Source: Negativicutes bacterium (GTDB taxonomy: Bacteria > Bacillota_C > Negativicutes > Sporomusales_B > JARLHX01). From it: DNA of 12,873 nt. The DNA lies in NCBI GenBank assembly GCA_031292015.1, contig JARLHY010000096.1:1-12873 (forward strand), read 5' to 3'. Shown one piece after another: positions 260-12,873 of this stretch. Made by a program: the position numbers and the translations under genes. The notes beneath the pieces were generated by a model. The model saw only the letters and a list, made by a program, of their open reading frames with translations. It did no database searches and was not told the origin of the DNA. Numbering within the stretch: position 1 is the first letter of the stretch; each line of letters begins with the position of its first letter.

Positions 260-676
260 TCAATTTACATTGACGACAAACCAGACACTGTTCACATTTT
301 GGCCTTTGACGTCGCCGTCAGCCATGTCTTTGACGAAATAGTAGAGCGGCCAGCCTTTGAACGTGGTTTGTTTCATGCCGTCCGCCCGGGTAATCATGCC
401 GAAGTCGGTGGCGTCCAGATTGGAGGGAACTACTATTTGCCCGGCATAAAACGCCGGCCAGTTAGCTGCGACCTGACCCATGGTGGTGCTGGCTCCGGGG
501 ACATCCTTGGTAAAATAGTAGAGGGTTCTGCCCTGACTGTCGACAAGGTAGTTGCCCAAGCCGGGGGTTTGGGCGGTCATGACGGTGTAATCCGGCTGGG
601 CCAATCCAGTCGAGGCCGTCGCCACCAGGAACAGGCAGATAAGGAAAAAGGTAATCGCCAGCATTTTCTTTGTCAT
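260..676 (-). CDS. Secreted Lipoprotein_15 / YxxxxD-repeat protein (COG4315-like)
   Basis: Small exported protein of 138 residues; its biochemical role is not known. A basic start (MTKK) and hydrophobic stretch (5-22) end in a GLA|Q signal peptidase I site near residue 26. The only Cys lies in the signal peptide (residue 14), so this is a soluble or surface secreted form and not a lipoprotein. The mature part shows the two repeats typical of the family: TLYYFTKD (51-58) in the context VDSQGR, and LYYFVKD (111-117) after KGWP. It also has the conserved Trp residues of NWPAFY and VWFVVN. Members are often annotated 'secreted repeat of unknown function' or 'lipoprotein with Yx(FWY)xxD motif'. 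The ATG is supported by GGGAGG (685-690) with an 8-nt spacer. A sigma-54-type promoter and a possible 35-residue ORF lie upstream. Family assignment is firm; function is unknown. Confidence 0.85.
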   Translation of the reverse strand: MTKKMLAITFFLICLFLVATASTGLAQPDYTVMTAQTPGLGNYLVDSQGRTLYYFTKDVPGASTTMGQVAANWPAFYAGQIVVPSNLDATDFGMITRADGMKQTTFKGWPLYYFVKDMADGDVKGQNVNSVWFVVNVN

Positions 677-1061: not shown

Positions 1062-2117
1062 TCATTTCTTCAGTCTGTAAATTTTCAACGGTCTTCCGAC
1101 TGAGCCGTATTTCTGTTCCATGTCAACCAAGCCGCTCTCGTGTAGGTAGTCAAAATAGTTTCGCACCGTAACCTTTGAAAAACTCAGTGCCATGGATACT
1201 TCCTGAATAGTGATCTCATTGCCTGCCTGTCGTTTTAAAAAGGATACGATCTGGTTCAGGGTACCCCGATTCAAGCCTTTCGGCAAATCCTGCAGCAGGT
1301 CAATAGAGGCATCGGGCCAGCCGTTTTCGTCTTCTTTAGGACAATCCTGATTCTCTTCCGGCTTAGAACGTCCCGCCTGTTCCCGTTCCGCCGGCTGCAG
1401 CGGCTCACCCACCGGGTCAGGAGCCTGTTGCCGGACCTCCGGCGCGCGATCGGGGTCCGAAGTGAGGGCCGCGGGAGTCTCCCGCCTGGGTCCACCGACG
1501 GACCGGGCGACGAAAACCCGGGTAATCAGCCCTGCCAGCATGATCAGCCCAAGCCCCGACCAACCTAATGTTTTAAAGGAATCATAAAAAACGGTGTCAT
1601 AAACCAGCGTCGGCACACCTACGTACAATACGCCGATGATCTCGCCGTATTCGCTTTTTATCGGTTTGTAGGCGGTCCGATAAACCGTGCCTGCCAATTC
1701 GGCCCGGCCGGTATGGTAACCGCCGAATTCCAGGGATTTGCTTATCACTTCATAAGGCGCGTAAACGCCGATCGCCCTGCTGCACTCACCCTCCGGCACG
1801 GTGGTTGCCACGCAGATGTTCCTCAGGAATATGACACAGGCATCCCCGGTCAGGCCTTTGATGTCATCGACCACCGAATGGTTATTGCTTATCTGGGTCT
1901 GTCCCTTATAAAGCTCCCCGTCTTTGACATTCCAGTGACCCGGATATCTCAGATCAAGAATTGCCTGGGTTACCTCAAGATCGGTGATTGCTTTGACTTC
2001 CTCAGCTTTCCAGGCCGCAGTTTCCACCCGGAAATAAAAAACAAGCATAAAACTCACGGCCAAAAAGACCGCTATCCCCATCACCAGAAATGAAACCCGC
2101 TGTTTTAGTGAAAGCAT
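1062..2117 (-). CDS. One-component transmembrane regulator: single-Cache sensor fused to CitB/DcuR-type HTH
   Basis: A 351-residue membrane protein that appears to sense outside the cytoplasm and bind DNA inside. TM1 spans about 7-28; a single Cache (sCache_3-like) domain spans about 33-175, with the diagnostic core GDACVIFL, RAIGVYA and YKPIKSEYGEIIGVLYVGVP; TM2 is about 184-204. A Pro/Glu/Arg-rich, probably disordered linker (206-275) leads to a C-terminal winged HTH (279-351). That HTH closely matches the effector domain of the citrate response regulator in this window: LPKGLNRGTL against LPKGLDRQTL, VTVRNYFDYL against VTLRKYIDYL, and YGSVGRPLKIY against YGAVGRPVNIY. There is no receiver, kinase or HAMP domain. 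Cys94, Cys102 and Cys112 cluster in the Cache domain. The gene is divergent from the MauE-selenoprotein operon, its probable target. The start has AGGGG a few bases upstream. Domain calls are firm; ligand and target are inferred. Confidence 0.85.
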   Translation of the reverse strand: MLSLKQRVSFLVMGIAVFLAVSFMLVFYFRVETAAWKAEEVKAITDLEVTQAILDLRYPGHWNVKDGELYKGQTQISNNHSVVDDIKGLTGDACVIFLRNICVATTVPEGECSRAIGVYAPYEVISKSLEFGGYHTGRAELAGTVYRTAYKPIKSEYGEIIGVLYVGVPTLVYDTVFYDSFKTLGWSGLGLIMLAGLITRVFVARSVGGPRRETPAALTSDPDRAPEVRQQAPDPVGEPLQPAEREQAGRSKPEENQDCPKEDENGWPDASIDLLQDLPKGLNRGTLNQIVSFLKRQAGNEITIQEVSMALSFSKVTVRNYFDYLHESGLVDMEQKYGSVGRPLKIYRLKK

Positions 2118-2525: not shown

Positions 2526-3095
2526 ATGAACCAAGTTACGAACATGCCGGCTTCGGAACAGGAAGGGAAATCGCCCGGCGGGTTGGCCCGATTTCTGGCA
2601 ATCATTCACAGCAAAGGGATCACACTGTTCTGCCGCTTATTCGTCGGCGCTTTGTTTGCCATCGGAGCCGTAGCCAAGCTGCAGGATATCAGGCAATATT
2701 CCGTCAACGCAGTTTATGAGTACGGACTCCTCCCGGTCGAACCAGTCGATATTGCCGCAGCTTTCGGGTATGTATTGCCCTTCCTGGAGCTCGGCGTGGG
2801 TCTGGCATTGCTGTTTGGCCTGCTTACGAGGCTGGCGTCGCTGGGCGGAGCGCTCCTCGGCCTGTCATTTGCCGCGGGAGAGGGGATTGTGCTGCTTCAG
2901 GGCAGGGACATCAACTGCGGCTGTTTCGGCGGGCTCGTCGGCACAATGATGTCGGTAACCATCTACCTGAGTGCGTTTATGGTGATATTCGGGCTGTTGG
3001 TCTACACATCGCCGAACCGCAATTTCTGTTCCTTAACCAATGTCTTTTTTAAAGACCGTCCAAACATTCCTAAAATACTTCGTTCCTTATCCTAA
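2526..3095 (+). CDS. MauE/DoxX-family membrane redox protein with CGC motif
   Basis: A 189-residue integral membrane protein with about four helices: roughly 32-52, 74-98, 100-123 and 140-160. The conserved acidic/hydrophobic pattern FLELGVGLALLFG before helix 3 and the signature INCGCFGG (Cys131, Cys133) between helices 3 and 4 identify the MauE branch of the DoxX/MauE family. MauE of methylamine utilisation is linked to disulfide formation and maturation of an exported enzyme, and the CGC pair is its likely redox site. Further Cys residues are at 36 and 168. The start has AAAGGAGG (2508-2515) and a 10-nt spacer. The gene ends 26 nt before the selenoprotein gene, so the two form an operon; it probably passes electrons through the membrane to or from the exported Sec/Cys pair. 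Family call is good; the partner role is inferred from context. Confidence 0.85.
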   Translation: MNQVTNMPASEQEGKSPGGLARFLAIIHSKGITLFCRLFVGALFAIGAVAKLQDIRQYSVNAVYEYGLLPVEPVDIAAAFGYVLPFLELGVGLALLFGLLTRLASLGGALLGLSFAAGEGIVLLQGRDINCGCFGGLVGTMMSVTIYLSAFMVIFGLLVYTSPNRNFCSLTNVFFKDRPNIPKILRSLS

Positions 3096-3121: not shown

Positions 3122-4882
3122 ATGCGTAAAACAGAGCACCGACAGTTTTTGGCGTTTATCATGATTGCAGTGTTCATGGTCGCAACGTTTCCGCTCTACG
3201 GTTGCGGATCATCGAAGGTGGAAACAGCCAGAGAATGGACGCTGGTCAATCCTCTGGGCGTTGTCCAATCGCAAATCATCAAAATAAACGCCCATCCCAC
3301 GACCCTTGAGGGCAAAACGGTTGTCCTGCGCTGGAATGGCAAGGAGAACGGCAACAATTTCCTTGATGAGGTGGCTGTTCAGCTGCAGCAGAATGTGAAA
3401 GATGTCCGCATTGTCAAGGTATACGAGACAATGCCCGAATCGGTAGGCTATAGTCCTGCCGCGGTGACGCCGGAAGTGGTGGCAAAGATCAAGGCTCTTA
3501 AGCCTGATATCATCATTTCCGGCCAGGCCGATTGAGGGAGCTGCACAGCACAGCTGGTAGTTGACCAGCTTAAATTCGAGGCAGCAGGCCTTCCCACGGT
3601 CACGATTGCAACAACGGATTTCATCAAGCTTGCGGAGCAAGCATCCATGGATTTCTCCGGTTCCAAAATCAGTTTTGTAGTTGTCAAGCATCCCATGGGC
3701 GGTATTGGCAAAGAATCGGTAGCCGCCAAAGCCAAAGCTGCTTTCCCGGAAATTCTCGAAGCAGCTACCAAGTGGGCGCCCACGGCGGTGGATGAATCGG
3801 CCCTGAAACAAGCGCCGTCTTATCCTGCTCCCACTTTCACCTTCAAAGGCACCTCCGCCGAATTAAATCAGATGTTTATCGACAAAGGTTGGTCCAACGG
3901 GATTCCGATCATTCCCCCGACTCCGGAGAAGGTTGCCACAATGCTGAAAGGCACGACGCGCCAACCGGATGAAGTGGTATGGATAGTTCCACCGCGCAAA
4001 GGTGTTGTGACGGTGGAGCTGGTGGCGACCTACGCCGTTATGGCAGGCTGCAAACCTGCTTACATGCCGGTCATCCTCTCAGCCCTGGACGCCATGAAGG
4101 ACCAGGCCTTTAACTGGCAGGCCCTGACGACGACTACTCACCCGAACGCCCCCCTGATTATGGTGAACGGACCGATAGCGAAAGAAATCGGTCTTGCCTC
4201 CGGCAGAGGAGCGATGGGCGGAGGTTACCAGGCCAATACATCGATTGGATATGCGATAGCCCTGATCACCGACGTCGTCGGCGATTCCAGGCCGCAGACC
4301 AACGACAACACGGCCCAGGGATGGGCTGGCAATGCCATCGCCACGGTTGTGGCGGAAAACATTGACGAAAGTCCCTGGAAGCCGTTCAGCATCGATAAGG
4401 GTTTTGGTCCGGAAGACAGTACGGTTACTGTTTTCTCCGGCGGCCCTCCCCTGAATATCGCCGATCATACCAGCAAGACGATTGACGGCGTGCTGCGGGC
4501 CTTTGCCGATACGGTGACTTATGCCGGGCAAAACACGGCCTGCGGTGTCGACCGGGATGTGATCCTGGTGATCAACCCCGAGTTCGCGAATCTGTTTAAT
4601 GATGCCGGCTTTACCAAAGAAAAACTTCAGGTTTGGCTGTGGGAGAATGCCCGCAAACCTGCCGGCGCTTATCCCGATCTGTGCGGGGTCAACGCGGCAA
4701 AGACGCTGGGCATCCCGGTGGACGACAGTACACCGGTGCCGACGGTCAGCAAGCCGGAACACTACAAGATATTTGTCGCCGGCGGTCAAGGTAAACACTC
4801 ACAGTACTGGCCTGGCTTCACCCTTTTCAACAATCCGAACTCACAGGCCCAAACAGTCGTTACTGTCAAAGTGCAGAAGTAA
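3122..4882 (+). CDS. UGSC-motif selenoprotein, predicted exported lipoprotein (UGA = Sec138)
   Basis: I read this as one 586-residue protein, with the in-frame TGA at 3533-3535 decoded as selenocysteine. The frame is open on both sides of the TGA and the protein sense continues: IIISGQAD-U-GSCTAQLVVDQL. Sec138 and Cys141 form a U-x-x-C redox motif, as in the UGSC family. A signal peptide with lipobox LYGC (Cys28) predicts a membrane-anchored lipoprotein. A UGSC alpha/beta domain spans about 35-215. It is followed by a large domain with GWSNGIPIIPPT (256-267), YAVMAGC (Cys310), VNGP (348-351) and a Gly-rich GGQGKHS (554-560), of the type often annotated 'selenoprotein B-like'. Other Cys are at 474 and 521. 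AGGAGG (3106-3111) lies 10 nt before this ATG; a TTG one codon earlier is also possible. The SECIS hairpin after the TGA and the adjacent selC support Sec decoding. Substrate unknown. Confidence 0.88.
3533..3571 (+). promoter_or_regulatory. Sec-coding UGA and bacterial SECIS hairpin
   Basis: TGA (3533-3535) is followed after a 16-nt gap by a perfect 7-bp stem, AGCTGGT (3552-3558) with ACCAGCT (3564-3570). The 5-nt apical loop AGTTG has a G in its first two positions. The loop begins 23 nt after the UGA. Loop size, the early G and this distance all fit the rules for SelB-bound bacterial SECIS elements. An alternative upstream pairing AGCTG/CAGCT (3539-3543 with 3551-3555) is possible but weaker. 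Confidence 0.82.
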
Positions 4883-5013: not shown

Positions 5014-5110
5014 GGGGGTGGATGGGGCCTGGTGGCTCCTGCGGTCTTCAAAACCGTTCGCGCGGTGCTAACACATCGTGGGTGGGTTCGATTCCTACAC
5101 ACTCCCGCCA
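5014..5110 (+). tRNA. selC: tRNA-Sec (UCA), selC
   Basis: A 97-nt tRNA including an encoded CCA (5108-5110) and discriminator G. The anticodon loop CTTCAAA (5046-5052) carries UCA (5048-5050) on a 5-bp stem. The D arm has a 6-bp stem, GGGGCC (5024-5029) with GGCTCC (5034-5039), and a 4-nt loop TGGT, which is diagnostic for Sec tRNA. A long variable arm follows (about 5058-5080), then a T arm GTGGG-TTCGATT-CCTAC. The acceptor stem pairs GGGGGTG (5014-5020) with CACTCCC (5100-5106), with an eighth position that is not Watson-Crick. It charges with Ser, is converted to Sec by SelA with SelD-made selenophosphate, and is delivered by SelB. It sits about 130 nt after the selenoprotein gene; selA, selB and selD are not in the window. 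Confidence 0.95.
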
Positions 5111-5171: not shown

Positions 5172-5268
5172 GTAAAACCGGCGCCTGATACGGTACAGTC
5201 CCTGAAACTAAGGGCACCATGCTGATCTTTGCAACACACCAAGGTTATTTGCCAAGGAGGGAACCTTG

Positions 5269-7314
5269 ATGAGCGGTATTGCTTCAAAGGTATCAAGTAT
5301 TCGCGTGCACCTGCTGGCTATTATCCTGTCGCTGATGATCGTCTCCCTGGGAGCGATGTTCGGCCTGAGCTATTATTTTGCCAAACAGGCTCTGTCGGCC
5401 AGTGTCAATCAGACGGCAGAGACTTTGAGCAACGATTACGCCACCCGGGTTTCTGCCGATATCCGGGAACGGATAACCCAGCTGGAGGACCTGGCCAACG
5501 ACCCGCGGATCCGTACCGCCAGCGACAGACAGCAGATCATCGAAGCAATGGCGGAAACCCGCAGTCGGCTTAATTTCTCTGTCATCAGTTTCACTTTCCC
5601 GGATTTTAACTCGCTGCGGGATGACGGAGCACCTTCGAATGTGGCTGACCGGGCTTATGTCCAACAGGCTTTCAAGACACAGAAACCGGTTGTATCCGAT
5701 CCCCTGATCGCCAAAGCCACCGGGAAGTGGTCGGTTCCGATCGCCGTACCGGTATTCGATCATGGAAAAATCACCGGTTTATTGACCGGAACGATTTCGC
5801 TGGAGGGTCTGAACGAGCTTGTCAAGGACATCAAGTTCAAAGACACCGGCTACGGTTTGATTATCGACGACTCCGGCACAGTGATCGCGCATGGCAAAAG
5901 GCCGGAGCTTGTCGGGAAGATAAACTTTAAAGAGAAAAAGATTAATCCTGATCTGAAACTGGGAGCAGCGGAACTTGACGCCAGCCTCATGTCGCTTTTC
6001 AAGACTGCCGCCGAAGGCAAGAAACAGATTCATGGGACCTATGCCTTTCTTGACGATGTGCCCCGGCACGGTGTTCTGACACCAATCAGCCTGCCTGGCG
6101 ATCAGAACTGGATCATTATGGTGACGGCGCCGGAGAGCGAGGTCGTCCGGGAAGTGGGGCAGCTTACCAAGGCCATGCTTGCCATCGTTTTTGCCTGTCT
6201 CGTCCTGGGAATCATTGTGGTGGTTTTCATCAGTTCCAGAATCGCCCGGCCTATCATTACCATCCGGGACGAAGCCCTGCTGCTGGCCGGGGGCGACCTG
6301 CGGCAGCGGACAACCGGCGTTCGCTCCAACAATGAAATCGGCCAATTGGCGGCTACCTTCGGGCAAATGGCTGACAATCTGCGTGGTCTGATCATGAAAG
6401 TGCAGCTCAAGGCCGAAACCGTCGCCTCTTCCAGTGAGGAACTTACGGCAAGTTCCCAGCAGTCGGCTCATGCCGCCAACCAGGTGGCATCTTCGATCAC
6501 CGAGATCGCCGCCGGTTCGGAACGGCAGACGGAGGCGATCGACAAAATGTCGGTGGTAGTGGAGGAAATCACGACAAGTATCGGGCAGATTTCTACGACA
6601 AGCAAACAGATCGAGGAAATCGCCGCCGGCACTTCCCACTCTACCGAAGACGGTCGTCAAGCCATCGCCACGGCGATGGAACAGATGAAAAATATCGGTG
6701 AGATGTCGCAGGAGGTCCAAAAGACGATCGGCAAACTGGCGAACGGGTCAAGGGAAATCGGTGAAATCGTCACTCTTATTTCCTCGATAGCCGGCCAAAC
6801 CAATCTGCTGGCCCTCAACGCCGCCATCGAGGCGGCCCGGGCCGGAGAAGCAGGCCGGGGCTTTGCCGTTGTCGCCGAAGAAGTGCGGAAGCTGGCGGAA
6901 GAATCCAATCGCGCCGCCCAGAAGATCGCGGCTCTCATCCAAACGAACGAAACCGATATGCATCAGGCCATCACCGTCACCCAGACCAGCAGCGAGACCG
7001 TGAATACAGGCATCAACCTTGTGGCGTCGGCGGGAGATACCTTCCGGGCCATAGCGGATTCTGTTGACCGGCTGTCGGCCCGGATCGGCGAAGTCACAGG
7101 ATCTATCGGCCAAATTGCCCAAGGCAGCCAGAATCTTGTCGCATCGGTGCAGAACATCGATCACGCGAGCCGGGAGAACGCCGCCGAGGCCCAAAACGTT
7201 TCAGCCGCAACCCAGGAACAATCGGCCTCCATGGAGGAAATCGCGTCTGCCAGTCAGGCGTTGGCTCAGACGTCGGCCGAGCTCCAGGCGGCAGTGGCGA
7301 ATTTCAAGGTATAA
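5269..7314 (+). CDS. Methyl-accepting chemotaxis protein with dCache sensor
   Basis: A 681-residue chemoreceptor. TM1 (about 13-36) and TM2 (about 301-322) bracket an extracytoplasmic dCache domain (about 40-295), with DRAYVQQAF, the [10 protein letters not shown] strand and [16 protein letters not shown] typical of the family. HAMP follows (about 323-376), then a long coiled-coil signalling domain whose hairpin tip has [20 protein letters not shown] and [13 protein letters not shown] (about 512-545), the CheA/CheW contact region. It lacks the C-terminal CheR/CheB tether pentapeptide and ends ANFKV, as in many Firmicute receptors. The ATG is preferred because AAGGAGG (5254-5260) is 8 nt away; a TTG one codon earlier is possible. 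It lies between selC and citAB and is convergent with citB. Ligand unknown; citrate or another carboxylate is a guess from context. Confidence 0.95.
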
Positions 7315-7379: not shown

Positions 7380-8045
7380 TCATTCCCAGCGCTTGTAGAT
7401 GTTTACCGGCCGGCCCACGGCGCCGTAGGTCAGCTTTGAGGTCAACGAGCCTGAGGCGACAAGGTAATCGATATACTTCCTGAGGGTGACCCGGGAAATG
7501 CCGAGTTGTTTGGACAGCTCCTCGGTGGTGAAGGACTCGCTGCGGGCAGCCACCGCCGAGGTTACGACCTGCAGCGTCTGGCGGTCGAGGCCTTTGGGCA
7601 GCAGGCCACTGGAGTGCCTTTCCAGGATCTTGGTATCGATGTCCTCCTGACTCAGTTGCTCCTGGCCGGCGATGGTTTCCCGCCTGGCCCGGTAGTTGGC
7701 CAGAGCCAGGCTGAGACGATCGAAGTCGAAGGGTTTGATGAGATAGTCCACCGCCCCAAGCCGCAGGGCCTGATTGATGCTGGTCGCGTCACGGGCCGCG
7801 GTGACCATGATGACGTCGACCCCCAGCCCGACGGAGCGGATGTCCGCCAACAGTTTGAGACCGCTGGCTCCGGGCATGAATATGTCGGCAAGCACCAGAT
7901 CGGTCCGGGTTTCCCGCAAGTGCTGCAGGGCCTTGGCGGCGTCGCCCGCAATGGCCTCAACGGTGAAACCGTCGCATTTTTCGATATAGCGCCGGCTCAG
8001 CTCGGCCACCATCGGGTCGTCTTCCACAATGAGCACCTTGATCAT
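7380..8045 (-). CDS. citB: CitB/DcuR-family response regulator
   Basis: A 221-residue two-component response regulator. The receiver domain (1-120) shows acidic pocket Asp9/Asp10, phospho-acceptor Asp54 in LADIFMP, Thr82 and Lys104 (LIKPFD). The C-terminal winged HTH (about 147-221) has FTTEELSKQLGISRVTLRKYIDYL and the family tail YGAVGRPVNIY. When phosphorylated by its kinase it should bind DNA and activate citrate uptake and lyase genes. Its start overlaps the kinase stop by ATGA, so translation is coupled. The nearby divergent citS-citDEF operon is the obvious target. In this family the same architecture is also called DcuR or CitT; cit naming rests on the neighbouring lyase genes. Confidence 0.92.
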   Translation of the reverse strand: MIKVLIVEDDPMVAELSRRYIEKCDGFTVEAIAGDAAKALQHLRETRTDLVLADIFMPGASGLKLLADIRSVGLGVDVIMVTAARDATSINQALRLGAVDYLIKPFDFDRLSLALANYRARRETIAGQEQLSQEDIDTKILERHSSGLLPKGLDRQTLQVVTSAVAARSESFTTEELSKQLGISRVTLRKYIDYLVASGSLTSKLTYGAVGRPVNIYKRWE

Positions 8046-9616
8046 TCCGCCACTCCTTCCGCCTGGTACGGGATGGTGACAATCGCTTCCGTGCCGCCGG
8101 CGACGGAGGCGATGCTTACCGCACCTCCCAGTCTGGCTACCGCCGTTTTCACAAGATACAGGCCAAAACCCCGCCCGTCGCCCTTAGTCGAATAGCCGAG
8201 CCGGAAAACCTCTTCGCCGGCAATCCCCGGCCCGTTGTCGGTCACCTCGATGGCAAGCTCGTCCTGGTCGCAGTAGATGCCGACAGACACCGCTCTTTCA
8301 GGCTGCTGCTGAATCGCCTCCAGGGCGTTGTCCACAAGGTTGCCGAGGATGGTGACAATGTCGTGGGACAGGCTGTCAACAGCCGGCAGAAAGGAATCTT
8401 CGGTGAGGGTCATCGTAACGCCGATTTCACGGGACCGGCTGAGTTTGCTGAGGATAAGGCCGGCGACCACCGTGTCCCTTATTCTTTGGCCGACAAAGCT
8501 CACTTCGGCCTGCTGGTCGTCGGCGACCTGACGGACATAGCGGATGAGTTCGTCGTAGGATTCCAGCCGGACCATCCCCAAGATGACATGGAGCTTGTTC
8601 ATGAATTCGTGGGCCTGGGAGCGGAGGGCTTCGGCGTAGCTCCGGACACCGGTGAGTTCCTCGGCCAGCTGGTTTATTTCTGTTTTGTCGCGGAAAGTGG
8701 CGATGGCGCCGACGATGGTTCCGCCGACATAGAGCGGCACCCGGTTGGTTATGATCTGGACGCCGACAAGGTCCTGCTCCTGATTCAGTTCAGCCTGGCC
8801 TGACGCCATAACTCTCACCAGACAGGTGTTGGGAACATACTCGTCGACATGCCGGCCCACCGGATCGCCCTGCAGTCCGCCGATGGCGAACAGCCGCCGG
8901 GCCTCGTCGCTTACCAGGTTGATGATCCCGCTGCGGTCGACGGCCAGCACCCCTTCCCGGACCGACTGGAGCATGGCGTTTCGCTCTTCCAGCAGCCGGG
9001 CGATGCCGGCAGGCTCGAAGCCGAACAGGGTGCGTTTGACGCTTCTGGCGAGCATCAGCGCCCCGGCGGTTCCGACCGCCAGGCCGAACAGCGTGGCGAT
9101 AACGATGTTGTTGCGACTGGATGCGACTGCTTTATTTACGTCGTCGAGCAGTACGCCGACAACCACCGCCCCGACCTGCCGCCCGCCGTCGTAAATCGGC
9201 ACAAAGGCCCGCAGCTGCGGGCCGAGGGTACCGCTGGCATAGGATATATACTCCTGGCCGGACAGGGCCGCCGCTTCGTCGCCGCCGACAACATGCTTGC
9301 CGATGCGTGCTTCGTTGGGGTGGGACATGCGGATGCTGTTCATGTCGAACACCACCACCAGGGCGACATCAGTCAGCCGGCGGATCTGATCGGCGTACTG
9401 CTGGACTTTGGCTGACTCGCTGCGGCCGGCAAGGCCATCGATCACAACCGGCGACTGGGCGACGATGCGGGCGACGTTCATGGCGCTGCGGCCGATGCCG
9501 TCGCTGATATCGTCGCCGAGCTGGGAGGAAATCAGGGCGTTGGTCACAACCAGGGCCAACAGCACAACTCCACAGACCAGCAGGATTATTTTTTTTTGCA
9601 GGCTCATGTTTTTCAT
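8042..9616 (-). CDS. citA: CitA/DcuS-family sensor histidine kinase
   Basis: A 524-residue membrane kinase. TM1 (about 9-31) and TM2 (about 169-191) enclose a periplasmic-type PAS (sCache) domain (40-165). Its binding features match CitA: SHPNEARIGK (His99, Lys107) and SGTLGPQLRAFVPIYD. A cytoplasmic PAS follows (about 205-310). The dimerisation/phosphotransfer helix has LRSQAHEFMNKLH with His336. The ATPase domain has an N box NLVDNALEA (426-434), DNGPGI (460-465) and GRGFGLYLV (481-489). It should detect external citrate, or possibly a C4-dicarboxylate, and phosphorylate the downstream regulator. The first ATG is favoured by GGGAG 7 nt upstream; an ATG three codons later is less well placed. 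The gene is divergent from citS. Confidence 0.92.
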   Translation of the reverse strand: MKNMSLQKKIILLVCGVVLLALVVTNALISSQLGDDISDGIGRSAMNVARIVAQSPVVIDGLAGRSESAKVQQYADQIRRLTDVALVVVFDMNSIRMSHPNEARIGKHVVGGDEAAALSGQEYISYASGTLGPQLRAFVPIYDGGRQVGAVVVGVLLDDVNKAVASSRNNIVIATLFGLAVGTAGALMLARSVKRTLFGFEPAGIARLLEERNAMLQSVREGVLAVDRSGIINLVSDEARRLFAIGGLQGDPVGRHVDEYVPNTCLVRVMASGQAELNQEQDLVGVQIITNRVPLYVGGTIVGAIATFRDKTEINQLAEELTGVRSYAEALRSQAHEFMNKLHVILGMVRLESYDELIRYVRQVADDQQAEVSFVGQRIRDTVVAGLILSKLSRSREIGVTMTLTEDSFLPAVDSLSHDIVTILGNLVDNALEAIQQQPERAVSVGIYCDQDELAIEVTDNGPGIAGEEVFRLGYSTKGDGRGFGLYLVKTAVARLGGAVSIASVAGGTEAIVTIPYQAEGVAE

Positions 9617-9658
9617 AACGTCACTCCCAGGGTGAATGATATATCTATTTGACCGACT

Positions 9659-9725
9659 GGCAGGTTATCCCTGCCAAAAACCACTCACTTACTTTATTTA
9701 CATATCTCTTAGATAACTTAGATAA
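9659..9725. promoter_or_regulatory. citA-citS intergenic operator region with tandem 9-bp repeat
   Basis: The divergent citA-citS gap is about 160 bp and A/T-rich. CTTAGATAA occurs twice back to back (9708-9716 and 9717-9725), and a small dyad GGCAGG/CCTGCC (9659-9664 with 9670-9675) lies on the citA side. CitB/DcuR proteins are known to bind A/T-rich tandem sites, so the repeat, about 50 bp upstream of the citS start, is the best candidate CitB site. A sigma-A promoter for citS is not clear (TTTACA at 9697-9702 has no good -10). Confidence 0.45.
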
Positions 9726-9776
9726 CCTCTTACCGTAGTTGGATTATTGTAACATCAGGGTAGGAGGTGTATGAAA

Positions 9777-11096
9777 ATGAGTGAACCCCAAGTTAGCCCC
9801 CCCGGAGCCGAGCCTGGCGCTTTTTCGCTTATGAAGCTCAAGGTCGGTCCTATTCCCCTGCCCCTTTATGTCATACTGGCAGCGGTCATCTATGCGGCAT
9901 CCTACTATAATAAGCTGCCCACCGACATGATCGGCGGCTTCGCCGTGATGATGATCATGGGTGTCCTGCTGGGCGACATCGGGCTGCGGGTCCCGGTACT
10001 GAGAGATATCGGCGGCCCGGCGATTCTTTCGATCTTTATCCCCAGCGTCATGGTCTTTTACAACATGATCAATCCGGCTTCCCTGAAAACCATCACGTCT
10101 TTCATGAAAGTCAGCAACTTCCTGTATTTCTACATATCCTGCCTGATTACCGGCAGTATTCTCGGCATGCAGCGGGTTATCCTGGTCCAGGGTTTCCTGC
10201 GGATGTTCATTCCCCTCTTTGTCGGCACGGTCGGTGCGGTGGTCGCCGGCACCGCTGTCGGCACGATCTGCGGAATGGGCTGGGACAAAAGCTTCTTTTA
10301 TGTCGTGATTCCGATTCTGTCCGGCGGCGTCGGGGAAGGCGTTCTGCCCCTTTCGCTGGCCTACGCCGAGCTGACCCATATGCCGTATGAAAAGCTGATC
10401 CCGATGCTGATCCCGGCAGCAACCCTCGGCAACGTCGTGGCCATCATGTGTGCCGGTTACCTGCGTAAGCTGGGCCAAAGAAAACCCCAGTACGACGGCG
10501 GCGGACTGCTGGTAAAAAGCGGTGACGAGGAATTTCTGCGGGCCGCCCAATCCACCGAGAAACCGGTGGACTTTCCGATCATGGGCGCAGGCCTCCTGAT
10601 GGCCATGACCTTCTTCCTGTTCGGCACAGTGGCAAGTCTGTTCATCCCTATTCCGGCTCCGATTATCATGATCTTTACCGCCGCGGCGGTTAAAGTACTG
10701 AATATCATGCCGCCGATCATGGAACAGGGCGCGTACCACATGTACCGCTTTGCCGCGTCTTCCATGACCTGGCCTCTGCTCATCGGGGTCGGCGTGGTCT
10801 ACACCCCGTGGAAAGACGTCATGGCGGCTCTGACCCCGGCCTATATCGCCACCGTTGTCGCCACCGTGTCGGCGATGATTGCCAGCGGCTTCTTCATCGC
10901 CAAGTATGTCAATATGTACCCCATCGAGGCGGCGATCGTGACAAGCTGCCACAGCGGCCTCGGCGGCACCGGCGATGTTGCTATCCTGTCGGCCTCCAAC
11001 CGCATGCAGCTGATGCCGTTCGCCCAAGTTTCCACCCGGCTGGGCGGAGCATGCATGGTTGTCCTGGCCGCAATACTGATGAGACTCACCTTATAG
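9777..11096 (+). CDS. citS: Na+/citrate symporter CitS, 2-hydroxycarboxylate transporter family
   Basis: A 439-residue inner-membrane transporter of the 2HCT family (CitS/CitP/MalP), which takes up citrate with Na+. The two re-entrant-loop GGxG motifs of the family are present: SGGVGEG (182-188) and GLGGTGDVAIL (394-404). The arginine of STRLGG (Arg421) corresponds to the substrate-binding Arg near the C-terminus of Klebsiella CitS. The length is close to the usual 440-450 residues, and there are about eleven hydrophobic segments. The start is set by AGGAGG (9762-9767): the ATG given here is 9 nt away, while an ATG two codons earlier is only 3 nt away, too close for good initiation. It is the first gene of the citS-citDEF operon and divergent from citA. 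It might carry malate as well. Confidence 0.93.
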   Translation: MSEPQVSPPGAEPGAFSLMKLKVGPIPLPLYVILAAVIYAASYYNKLPTDMIGGFAVMMIMGVLLGDIGLRVPVLRDIGGPAILSIFIPSVMVFYNMINPASLKTITSFMKVSNFLYFYISCLITGSILGMQRVILVQGFLRMFIPLFVGTVGAVVAGTAVGTICGMGWDKSFFYVVIPILSGGVGEGVLPLSLAYAELTHMPYEKLIPMLIPAATLGNVVAIMCAGYLRKLGQRKPQYDGGGLLVKSGDEEFLRAAQSTEKPVDFPIMGAGLLMAMTFFLFGTVASLFIPIPAPIIMIFTAAAVKVLNIMPPIMEQGAYHMYRFAASSMTWPLLIGVGVVYTPWKDVMAALTPAYIATVVATVSAMIASGFFIAKYVNMYPIEAAIVTSCHSGLGGTGDVAILSASNRMQLMPFAQVSTRLGGACMVVLAAILMRLTL

Positions 11097-11106
11097 GAGG
11101 AAAACC

Positions 11107-11400
11107 ATGAACGAAGTAACGAAGCCGGCCCAGGCCGGAACCCTGGAATCCAACGACGTTGTCGTCACTGTCGCGCCTGTCGGCAAAGGAAGCGGGATCA
11201 CCATTGAGATGACCAGCATCGTTATGGCCCAGTTTGGCGCCCAGATCAAAAAAGTCGTCGAAGATACGGTGAAGGAACAAGGCCTCGCCGACGCTTTCGT
11301 CAAAATCAACGACCGCGGCGCGCTGGACTGCACCATCCGGGCCCGGGTGCTGACCGCCCTGTCCCGCGGCGGCGCCGCTGTGAAGGAGGCGATGGCATGA
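11107..11400 (+). CDS. citD: Citrate lyase acyl carrier protein (gamma subunit) CitD
   Basis: A 97-residue acyl carrier subunit of citrate lyase. AGTLESNDV (10-18) holds the conserved serine (Ser15) that carries the phosphoribosyl-dephospho-CoA prosthetic group, whose acetyl thioester is exchanged for citryl. The conserved middle block KGSGITIEMTSIV and the region LADAFVKINDRGALDCTIRARV match the family, and the length is typical. AGGAGG immediately after the citS stop gives a 6-nt spacing. Its stop overlaps the citE start (ATGA). The prosthetic group and its activation need CitX, CitG and CitC, none of which lies in this window. Confidence 0.95.
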   Translation: MNEVTKPAQAGTLESNDVVVTVAPVGKGSGITIEMTSIVMAQFGAQIKKVVEDTVKEQGLADAFVKINDRGALDCTIRARVLTALSRGGAAVKEAMA

Positions 11401-12266
11401 GCCTGAGAAGAACATTGCTCTTCATCCCTGGCAACAACCCGGGAATGCTGCAAAACGGCGGAGTCCTGGGAGCCGATTCCCTGGCCTTCGATCTGGAGGA
11501 CGCCGTCGCCCCGCGGGAAAAAGACGCGGCCCGCTTCCTGGTCGGGCACGCCCTGCGGACCGTCGATTACGGGACATCGGAAAAAGTGGTCCGGATCAAC
11601 GCCCTGGATACTTACGCGGATATCGATATCGCGGCGATCGTTCCCTGCCGCCCGGACGCCCTTCTGGTTCCCAAAGTCAATTCGGCTGAAGATATCCGCC
11701 AGGTAGTGGCGATGATCAAAGCGGCCGAAAAACCCGGCCAGAAAAAAGTCAAGATTTTCGCCCTGATCGAGACCCCGCTGGGGATCGAGAACGCCTTTCA
11801 GATCGCCGGCGCCGACAGCCGGGTTGTCGCCATCTGCCTCGGGGCCGAGGACTACACTGCCGGTATCGGCGCTGAGCGGACCAAAGGCGGCCAGGAGATC
11901 TTCAGCGCCCGCTCCAGGATCGTCAACGCCGCCATGGCCGCCGGCGTCCATCCCCTTGATACTCCCTGGACCGACGTCACCGATGAAGCCGGTCTGGTGG
12001 AAGACACCCTCTTTGCCAAAAAACTCGGCTTCAAAGGAAAGCTTTCCATCAACCCCCGCCATGTCGACGCCATCCACAAAGTCTTCAACCCGACGCCGAA
12101 GGAAGTTGCCTGGGCCGAACGGGTGGTGGAAGTCATCAAGGAAGCGGAAGCCCAGGGAGCCGGCGCCATCTCCCTGGACGGAAAAATGATTGACAAGCCG
12201 ATCGTCGATCGGGCCGAAAGAGTGCTCGCCCTGGCGAAACTCCTCGGCATCGAAGGGGGCAACTAA
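11397..12266 (+). CDS. citE: Citrate lyase beta subunit (citryl-ACP lyase) CitE
   Basis: A 289-residue beta subunit, which cleaves citryl-ACP to oxaloacetate and acetyl-ACP. It has a CitE/HpcH-type TIM barrel with LRRTLLFIPGNNP (3-15), the metal/substrate motif FDLEDAV (31-37), VRIN (65-68), ALIETPLGI (122-130), GAEDY (149-153) and GFKGKLSINPRHV (211-223). The length is normal (about 290). Its ATG overlaps the citD stop by 4 nt and is preceded by GAAGGAGG inside citD, so translation is coupled. The context leaves little doubt that this is the true lyase subunit and not a stand-alone CitE-like enzyme. Confidence 0.95.
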   Translation: MSLRRTLLFIPGNNPGMLQNGGVLGADSLAFDLEDAVAPREKDAARFLVGHALRTVDYGTSEKVVRINALDTYADIDIAAIVPCRPDALLVPKVNSAEDIRQVVAMIKAAEKPGQKKVKIFALIETPLGIENAFQIAGADSRVVAICLGAEDYTAGIGAERTKGGQEIFSARSRIVNAAMAAGVHPLDTPWTDVTDEAGLVEDTLFAKKLGFKGKLSINPRHVDAIHKVFNPTPKEVAWAERVVEVIKEAEAQGAGAISLDGKMIDKPIVDRAERVLALAKLLGIEGGN

Positions 12267-12268
12267 CT

Positions 12269-12873
12269 ATGCTGAACAAAGTAAACAGACAAGTGCCGGA
12301 GCAACTGGACGGCTACGGCCAGGTCCGCCCTTTCGCCGGAGCTTTTCAGACGCTGCCGGATATGTGCCGCTACGCACCCAAGGTTAAGGCAGCCTGGCCC
12401 GGCAACAGCAAACTCCTCGCCAGTATCGAGGATGTTTTCGCCAAAATCGGCATTAAGGACGGCATGACGCTGTCTTTCCATCATCACTTCCGGGACGGCG
12501 ACTATGTCCTGAATATGGTGCTCGCCGTCGCAGCCAAACTGGGCCTGAAAAACCTAAAAGTGGCCTCAAGCTCGATTTTCCCTGTTCATGCGCCGCTGGT
12601 GGACCACATCAAAAATGGCGTGGTCTCGCAGATCGACTGCAACTATATGGGGGGACCGGTGGGCACCGCCGTCGCCAAAGGCCTGATGGAAAAGCCGGTC
12701 ATTCTCAGGACCCACGGCGGCAGAGCCAGGGCGCTGGAATGCGGCCAGCTCAGAGTAGATGTCGCTTTCATCGCCGCCCCGGCGGCCGACGACTACGGCA
12801 ACCTGAACGGCGTGTCGGGCCCGGCAGCCTGCGGCTCTCTCGGCTATGCCATGCCGGACAGCGAATACGCCGA
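12269..12873 (+). CDS. citF: Citrate lyase alpha subunit (citrate:acetyl-ACP transferase) CitF, 3' truncated by window
   Basis: First 201 residues of the alpha subunit, which swaps acetate for citrate on the acyl carrier before cleavage. The protein opens MLNKVNRQVPEQLDGYGQV, close to CitF N-termini, and continues with SFHHHFRDGDYVLNMV (about 71-86), SSSIFPVHAPLVDHI and AAPAADDYGNLNG, all family hallmarks. The full protein is usually about 510 residues, so the rest runs past the right edge. The ATG comes 2 nt after the citE stop; the purine-rich GAAGGGGG (12251-12258) inside citE can act as the ribosome site. The frame is intact to the last base. citC, citX and citG may follow. Confidence 0.95.
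   Translation, partial: MLNKVNRQVPEQLDGYGQVRPFAGAFQTLPDMCRYAPKVKAAWPGNSKLLASIEDVFAKIGIKDGMTLSFHHHFRDGDYVLNMVLAVAAKLGLKNLKVASSSIFPVHAPLVDHIKNGVVSQIDCNYMGGPVGTAVAKGLMEKPVILRTHGGRARALECGQLRVDVAFIAAPAADDYGNLNGVSGPAACGSLGYAMPDSEYA

What the first reader, a model, noticed from the sequence alone, without database searches (positions are those of the whole stretch)
3122..4882. A selenoprotein split by a Sec-coding UGA
Seen: two ORFs in the same frame are separated by a single TGA, and the codons between the TGA and the next ATG are open and protein-like. The motif becomes U-G-S-C, a U-x-x-C redox pair. A SECIS-like hairpin follows and selC is the next gene downstream. Known: UGSC-type selenoproteins and Cys versions of them exist. 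Inference: this is a single 586-residue selenoenzyme; automated annotation would give two wrong genes.
Basis: partly seen in the sequence, partly recalled or inferred. Interest (0 to 1): 0.9.

Follow-up and report, generated by a model that had tools for sequence, protein, structure and literature searches.

The report
Exported selenoenzyme read through a UGA
What software calls two bacterial genes is almost certainly one enzyme carrying selenocysteine, probably anchored outside the cell membrane; it belongs to a known but functionally unstudied selenoprotein family that looks related to the glycine reductase enzymes of anaerobic bacteria.

Summary
ATG 3122 to TAA 4882 is one frame, broken only by TGA 3533-3535 (U138-G-S-C). 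I counted 22 non-redundant UGA loci, the window included: the UGA sits at this place in a U-x-x-C motif, and 19 of 22 have a SECIS-like hairpin after it, against 2.9% of other codons in those genes. Homologs without Sec span both halves, and the 37 codons after the UGA are under purifying selection. The domain is the known UGSC family (PF24696), and a UGSC fusion was reported in 2008, so the selenoprotein as such is not new. Three points I did not find in the papers searched: (1) by profile, the Sec domain matches the Sec-bearing end of glycine reductase GrdB (hhalign 97.3%; thioredoxin 0.2-2.6%); (2) the window's branch is predicted exported, beside a MauE membrane protein and a sensor-regulator in 8 of 8 contigs, three of them also with thioredoxin and CcdA genes; (3) 172 of 179 listed database relatives begin after the UGA position. 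Best reading: an extracytoplasmic selenoreductase with GrdB-like chemistry, fed reducing power across the membrane. Substrate unknown; selenium insertion and export are predicted, not shown.

The parts
3122..4882 (+). Selenoprotein gene: UGSC domain plus C-terminal domain, 586 residues with U138 (TTG 3119 is an alternative start)
3533..3535 (+). In-frame UGA read as selenocysteine (U138 of U-G-S-C)
   Evidence: 22 non-redundant UGA loci, window included, with U-x-x-C at this place
3552..3570 (+). SECIS-like hairpin AGCTGGT-AGTTG-ACCAGCT, loop starting 23 nt after the UGA
3203..3205 (+). Cys28, probable lipid-anchored cysteine after a hydrophobic signal sequence (PLYGC)
   Evidence: Two strict lipoprotein patterns: failed by the window, matched by 8 of 8 other close genes
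3242..3769 (+). UGSC domain, residues 41-216; alternating strand/helix model with U138 just before a helix
   Evidence: PF24696 108.7 bits, cut-off 25; model pLDDT 90.8; profile match to the GrdB Sec domain
3815..4879 (+). C-terminal domain (residues 232-586 as modelled), no Pfam family; residue C310 (4049-4051) kept in 64 of 65 rows
2526..3095 (+). MauE/DoxX-family membrane protein with C-G-C-F motif, 23 nt before TTG 3119 (26 before ATG 3122); likely redox partner
   Evidence: PF07291 75.8 bits; present in 8 of 8 close contigs, window included, CGCF in 8 of 8
1062..2117 (-). Membrane sensor-regulator: sCache_3_3 sensor domain plus DpiA/DcuR-like HTH; two conserved Cys in the sensor
   Evidence: present in 8 of 8 close contigs, window included. 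The HTH_64 match is just below its cut-off (26.9 against 27)
5014..5110 (+). selC, selenocysteine tRNA (anticodon TCA)

Best explanation
Window 3122-4882 encodes one selenoprotein. UGA 3533-3535 is decoded as Sec with the hairpin 3552-3570 and the selC tRNA encoded next door (strongly supported by comparison; insertion itself not shown). The product is translocated and tethered outside the membrane by a lipid on Cys28 (predicted). Its UGSC domain is a relative of the Sec-bearing C-terminal domain of glycine reductase GrdB (profile evidence), fused to a C-terminal domain of unknown function that probably helps form the substrate site (inference). The Sec and its partner Cys are kept reduced from across the membrane by MauE and, in some relatives, by a CcdA/DsbD-type conduit with a thioredoxin (genomic context). 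It reduces a small substrate outside the cell, whose presence or redox state the adjacent sCache regulator senses (inference).
For: Frame and UGA. In 22 non-redundant UGA loci (window included) the motif is U-x-x-C; 19 of 22 have a hairpin score of 14 or more against 2.9% of 7,357 other codons, and 0 of 10 non-Sec homologs do. SelB above cut-off in 11 of 12 genomes with UGA homologs against 1 of 9 with only non-UGA homologs (Fisher p 0.0004). Purifying selection across the 37 codons between UGA and ATG 3647. GrdB relation: hhalign 97.3%, E 2.6e-11, Sec aligned to Sec; reversed 14%, thioredoxin 0.2% (first profile) and 2.6% (cleaner profile), B12-binding 0.4%. A UGSC selenoprotein gene of genome G317 lies in line with PF09338, GRDB, GRDA, thioredoxin and thioredoxin-reductase-like genes. 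Export: strict lipobox in 8 of 8 close genes other than the window's. Redox context: MauE and regulator in 8 of 8 close contigs, window included; CcdA/DsbD and thioredoxin in three of these; two Cys-type homologs with hydrophobic N-termini are followed by a redoxin-family gene and a CcdA/DsbD-cluster gene.
Against: No selenium, export or activity data. The window's own lipobox (PLYGC) fails the two strict patterns. The protein misses the NF041046 curated cut-off (115.8 against 125) and gives no PF07355 hit up to E 10. The third Cys of the GrdB motif UxxCxxC is absent, and the second Cys (C141) is Ser in 6 of 16 aligned relatives, so a U-x-x-C pair is not kept in many non-Sec forms; some forms have Met at the Sec place. 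The GrdB N-terminal part (69.9%) and GrdE (49.5%) also score above the controls, so part of the signal may be a wider alpha/beta similarity. The C-terminal domain shows no profile similarity to GrdE (0.1%), so a pyruvoyl partner in the same chain is not supported. Three of 22 UGA loci fail my hairpin criterion. No tRNA gene was found in the four relatives' loci (L003 holds no downstream DNA), though tRNA-Sec-like genes are elsewhere in their genomes. GrdB was found in only 5 of 12 genomes with UGA homologs.
Confidence: 0.6

Rival explanations
1. Selenoprotein, but a general thiol-disulfide oxidoreductase of the Trx-like kind (the published guess): an exported reductase of protein or small-molecule disulfides, with MauE/CcdA/Trx as its usual partners.
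For: Several database relatives are named thiol-disulfide oxidoreductase; [quoted passage not shown] U-x-x-C at a helix start; thioredoxin/CcdA neighbours.
Against: Profile similarity to thioredoxin is 0.2-2.6%, to the GrdB Sec domain 97.3%. The model alternates five strands and helices with U138 after the third strand. A large conserved second domain suggests a specific substrate (inference).
Confidence: 0.25
2. Two separate genes: a 137-residue lipoprotein ending at TGA 3533 and a 411-residue protein starting at ATG 3647.
For: Gene prediction does this; 172 of 179 listed relatives start after the UGA position. 16 of these start beyond residue 225 and could be real stand-alone C-terminal-domain proteins; in L019 the two halves lie in separate overlapping frames.
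Against: UGA conserved in the relatives read, conserved coding sequence in between, fused homologs with no stop, and PF24696 spanning both sides of the UGA (108.7 bits joined, 31.0 for the N half, none for the C half). Even in L019 the UGA itself is inside the UGSC frame.
Confidence: 0.02
3. Sequencing error or decayed gene.
For: A single in-frame stop in one contig would look like this.
Against: UGA at the same place in assemblies of 12 genomes, with nonsynonymous change well below synonymous.
Confidence: 0.01

Closest known systems
UGSC family (seleno)protein, PF24696 / NF041046
   Same: Same domain and same Sec/Cys position; one of the larger selenoprotein families of the GOS set (255 Sec, 21 Cys in PMC2398784, passages)
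   Different: Below the NF041046 cut-off; here with an N-terminal export signal, a large C-terminal domain and a MauE neighbour
UGSC/Unknown_1 fusion (PMC2398784, Figure S1A)
   Same: A UGSC selenoprotein fused to an unknown domain was already reported in 2008 (passages)
   Different: I could not see the supplement, so whether Unknown_1 is the same domain is untested
Glycine/D-proline reductase selenoprotein B (GrdB/PrdB)
   Same: Sec domain matches by profile across the Sec: UG(S/T)CT, then GIPxV and a P-H-P segment
   Different: No third Cys of UxxCxxC, no PF07355 hit, different partner domain, predicted extracytoplasmic. PrdB itself was not tested; the profile holds GrdB-type sequences only
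Exported thiol pathways (CcdA/DsbD, redoxin/TlpA type, MauE)
   Same: Neighbour genes are of these families
   Different: The presumed terminal enzyme is a Sec-containing UGSC protein

Membership tests
Bacterial selenoprotein | In-frame UGA conserved, or replaced by Cys, in homologs | tested here: met
   22 non-redundant UGA loci, window included, U-x-x-C at this place; CGSC/CGLC homologs. Four loci have Met instead (MGTS)
Bacterial selenoprotein | SECIS hairpin immediately downstream of UGA | tested here: met
   3552-3570; 19 of 22 loci against 2.9% background. Criterion partly set after seeing the window's hairpin
Bacterial selenoprotein | Sec machinery in the genome | tested here: met
   selC in the window; selB above cut-off in 11 of 12 genomes with UGA homologs. 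The window's own genome is not held
Bacterial selenoprotein | Selenium in the protein | not testable with these tools
   Needs 75Se labelling or mass spectrometry
UGSC family PF24696 | Pfam gathering score | tested here: met
   108.7 against 25 bits
NF041046 equivalog | Curated cut-off 125 bits | tested here: not met
   115.8 bits
GrdB (PF07355) | Pfam gathering score | tested here: not met
   No hit up to E 10; that model appears to stop before the Sec
GrdB (PF07355) | Homology in the Sec-bearing C-terminal domain | tested here: met
   hhalign 97.3%, reversed control 14%
GrdB (PF07355) | UxxCxxC motif | tested here: not met
   UGSCTAQ here
GrdB (PF07355) | Partner pyruvoyl subunit (PF09338) and GrdA | tested here: inconclusive
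   Not among the window's genes scanned; in line with the UGSC gene in G317; PF09338 in 17 of 19 genomes searched, not all of them with UGSC genes; window genome not held
Thioredoxin-like protein | Thioredoxin profile or fold | tested here: inconclusive
   Profile 0.2% and 2.6%; predicted model has another strand/helix order; absence from the VIA-align rows proves nothing
Bacterial lipoprotein | Signal peptide with lipobox Cys | tested here: inconclusive
   Window PLYGC fails two strict patterns; 8 of 8 other close genes pass

The most novel reading that the evidence does not exclude
An extracytoplasmic counterpart of the Stickland reductases: a membrane-tethered GrdB-like selenoenzyme that reductively cleaves a small molecule outside the cell, using reducing power passed across the membrane by MauE/CcdA/thioredoxin and controlled by a dedicated redox- or substrate-sensing regulator. 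UGSC proteins in general would then be substrate-specific reductases of the GrdB superfamily.
Probability: 0.35. Interest if true: 0.8.

Novelty: new variant of a known kind. Interest (0 to 1): 0.55.

Why it matters
UGSC proteins are among the more abundant predicted selenoproteins in the GOS aquatic samples (PMC2398784 and PMC9402790, passages), and I found no assigned function. Linking them to GrdB gives a testable reaction type, and the exported branch suggests selenium chemistry on the outside of anaerobes. It also shows that most of the listed database relatives of this gene are cut at the UGA, which hides the active site.

Tried and rejected

Controls: my first thioredoxin profile (15 sequences, 6 with CGPC) was poor, so I rebuilt it on checking (21 sequences, all with W-C/S-x-x-C); the match to UGSC rose from 0.2% to 2.6%, which changes nothing in the reading. 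Of the 32 UGSC rows, 29 are distinct and hhalign kept 25.

Counts: the locus-picking script asked for U-x-x-C, so 'all U-x-x-C' is not an independent finding of that script; but each search row that reported an inside TGA (18, 2 more) was printed and shows it. The window and L019 (two frames) make 22. Hairpin criterion: loop start, loop length and a G in the first two loop positions were chosen after seeing the window's hairpin, so 19 of 22 is partly post hoc; two failing loci (G320) have a 7-bp stem with another loop. Dropped before the count: duplicate fetches of one place (L005, L006, L007, L009, L010, L036, L038) and the weak, broken L032/L037 (G351); G351 is also left out of the SelB tally.

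Full report
Observation. The window carries one frame from ATG 3122 to TAA 4882, broken only by TGA 3533-3535. Nine other genes checked have no in-frame TGA, and five of these nine end with TGA, so the code is standard. A 7-bp hairpin lies at 3552-3570. Judged alone it is weak evidence (z -1.2 and -1.3, with another fold preferred for the shorter piece; 1.3% of shuffles). selC follows at 5014-5110.

Conservation. A scan of genome contigs gave four loci with the TGA at the same place; best segments match at 63-67% identity, over the whole protein in three and up to residue 435 in L003, which its contig cuts. Among 20 genomes of the class 5 had a match, and among 398 of the phylum 20. After dropping duplicates I counted 22 UGA loci, the window included. 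They show UGSC, UDGC, UTAC or UIGC. Nineteen of 22 have a hairpin score of 14 or more, against 2.9% of 7,357 other codons of the same genes and 0 of 10 non-Sec homologs. Non-Sec homologs show CGSC, CGLC or MGTS. Seven of 179 listed database relatives are at least 500 residues long; six of these show C-G-x-C or C-G-x-S at the matching place, and for the seventh (P0120) that script printed no motif, though the segment printed reads CGVS. Only two of the seven keep the second Cys. Across the 37 codons between the UGA and ATG 3647, pN is 0.13-0.31 and pS 0.53-0.80 against eight relatives. SelB is above cut-off in 11 of 12 genomes with UGA homologs and in 1 of 9 with only non-UGA homologs, p 0.0004. 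The missing one, G221, has a SelB C-terminal piece at the edge of the contig that holds its UGA homolog. tRNA-Sec models score above cut-off in 3 of 3 relatives' genomes searched, though the same search passes the cut-off in 5 of 14 control genomes. This leaves a sequencing error, a pseudogene or two independent genes very unlikely. One locus, L019, has the UGSC half (with UGA) and the C-terminal half in two overlapping frames, so the fusion is not universal, or that copy is frameshifted.

Annotation. 172 of 179 listed relatives begin downstream of residue 138: 127 at residues 139-180, 29 at 181-225 and 16 beyond 225 (ungapped estimate). The last 16 may be real stand-alone C-terminal proteins. 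The lists hold the best 120 of 521 and of 673 hits and exclude proteins under 0.55 of the query length, so short N-terminal pieces could not appear.

Family. PF24696 scores 108.7 bits (cut-off 25) and NF041046 115.8 (cut-off 125, not met). The UGSC family and a UGSC/Unknown_1 fusion were in print in 2008 (PMC2398784, passages). A 2026 review lists UGSC among selenoproteins whose functions remain largely uncharacterised (PMC13188914, passages). A 2017 paper mentions UGSC selenoproteins in genomes whose Sec tRNA has anticodon CUA (PMC5330540, passage). The search for UGSC with selenoprotein found 8 papers; I read passages of all 8, and none of their UGSC passages links UGSC with GrdB or mentions export. 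Five of them also hold the words glycine reductase.

Relation to GrdB. I built profiles from 32 UGSC rows (29 distinct, 25 used by hhalign) and 25 GrdB proteins. hhalign gave 97.0% against whole GrdB and 97.3%, E 2.6e-11, against its C-terminal Sec domain, with Sec aligned to Sec. Controls: reversed UGSC 9 and 14%, thioredoxin 0.2 and 2.6%, B12-binding 0.4%, fumarase 0.3%, but GrdE 49.5% and the GrdB N-terminal part 69.9%. The last two may reflect related alpha/beta units. Pfam's GRDB model gives no hit, but that model appears to end where the frame reaches the UGA. In genome G317 a UGSC selenoprotein gene lies on the same strand as PF09338, PF07355, thioredoxin-reductase-like, thioredoxin, GRDA, DUF5940 and FA_synthesis genes, a glycine-reductase-type cluster. 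This is one genome; GrdB was found in 5 of 12 genomes with UGA homologs.

Structure. The model of the whole protein has pLDDT 90.8. Residues 61-222 alternate five strands and helices, with U138 just before helix 139-154. The C-terminal domain (pLDDT 93.5) has no convincing PDB match. C310 is kept in 64 of 65 rows; C141 in 10 of the 16 rows that cover it.

Export and partners. The window's N-terminus is hydrophobic and ends in PLYGC. It fails two strict lipoprotein patterns, which I wrote from memory; the other 8 of 8 close genes pass. Other UGA homologs (G320, G125, G211) and several Cys-type ones also have hydrophobic N-termini, while further homologs have none (by eye). The close branch sits in 8 contigs, the window's included. 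All 8 have a MauE gene with a CGCF motif and a sCache-HTH regulator with two conserved Cys in its sensor part. Three of the 8 (L085, L086, L087) also have CcdA/DsbD and thioredoxin genes; the CcdA/DsbD family was assigned by Pfam in L085 and L086 and by clustering in L087. Two Cys-type homologs with hydrophobic N-termini (L095, L096) are followed by a redoxin-family gene (Pfam on L096) and a gene of the CcdA/DsbD cluster, apparently an independent association.

Mechanism. Shown by comparison: one Sec protein. Predicted: export and lipid anchoring. Inferred: reduction of the Sec from across the membrane, and GrdB-like reductive chemistry on an extracellular small molecule. The rival of a plain disulfide reductase remains open.

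Verdict. What looks like an ordinary annotation error hides a real selenoenzyme of a known family. Its likely export, its neighbours and the GrdB link make it a new variant worth testing.

Noticed in passing
L090:6140-7204 (-): Pfam's GRDB model PF07355 (347 positions) appears to end where the GrdB frame reaches its UGA, so the model may omit the Sec domain; possibly a product of truncated annotation.
   Followed up: partly
L019:842-2487: UGSC half with UGA and C-terminal half lie in two overlapping frames: an unfused pair or a frameshift.
   Followed up: partly
window 7380-12873: Citrate/dicarboxylate cluster: DcuS-like sensor kinase, DcuR/DpiA-like regulator, CitS-like 2HCT transporter, citD, citE and the start of citF.
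   Followed up: partly
window 260-676 (-): Small protein with two Lipoprotein_15 stretches (PF03640) and a hydrophobic N-terminus, next to the regulator.
   Followed up: no
window 1062-2117 (-): One-chain membrane regulator, sCache_3_3 sensor joined to a DpiA-like HTH, with two Cys in the sensor part kept in 8 of 8 contigs (window included): possibly a redox sensor.
   Followed up: partly
L088 (G320) 12499-14460: selB lies between UGSC selenoprotein genes in a 3,817,036-base contig, the same length as the contig of proteins named Limnochorda pilosa; three UGA homologs in that genome.
   Followed up: partly
L022, L028, L030, L031: Homologs with Met in the Sec place (MGTS); in L099, L100 and L101, from three of these four genomes, URO-D, aldehyde ferredoxin oxidoreductase, TRAP-transporter or LysR-cluster genes lie near.
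   Followed up: no
L020, L035, L093, L094: Tandem pairs of UDGC-type selenoprotein genes; genes of MgtE, short-chain dehydrogenase and YheC/D ATP-grasp type lie near.
   Followed up: no
window 5266-7314: Methyl-accepting chemotaxis protein with dCache domain directly after selC.
   Followed up: no
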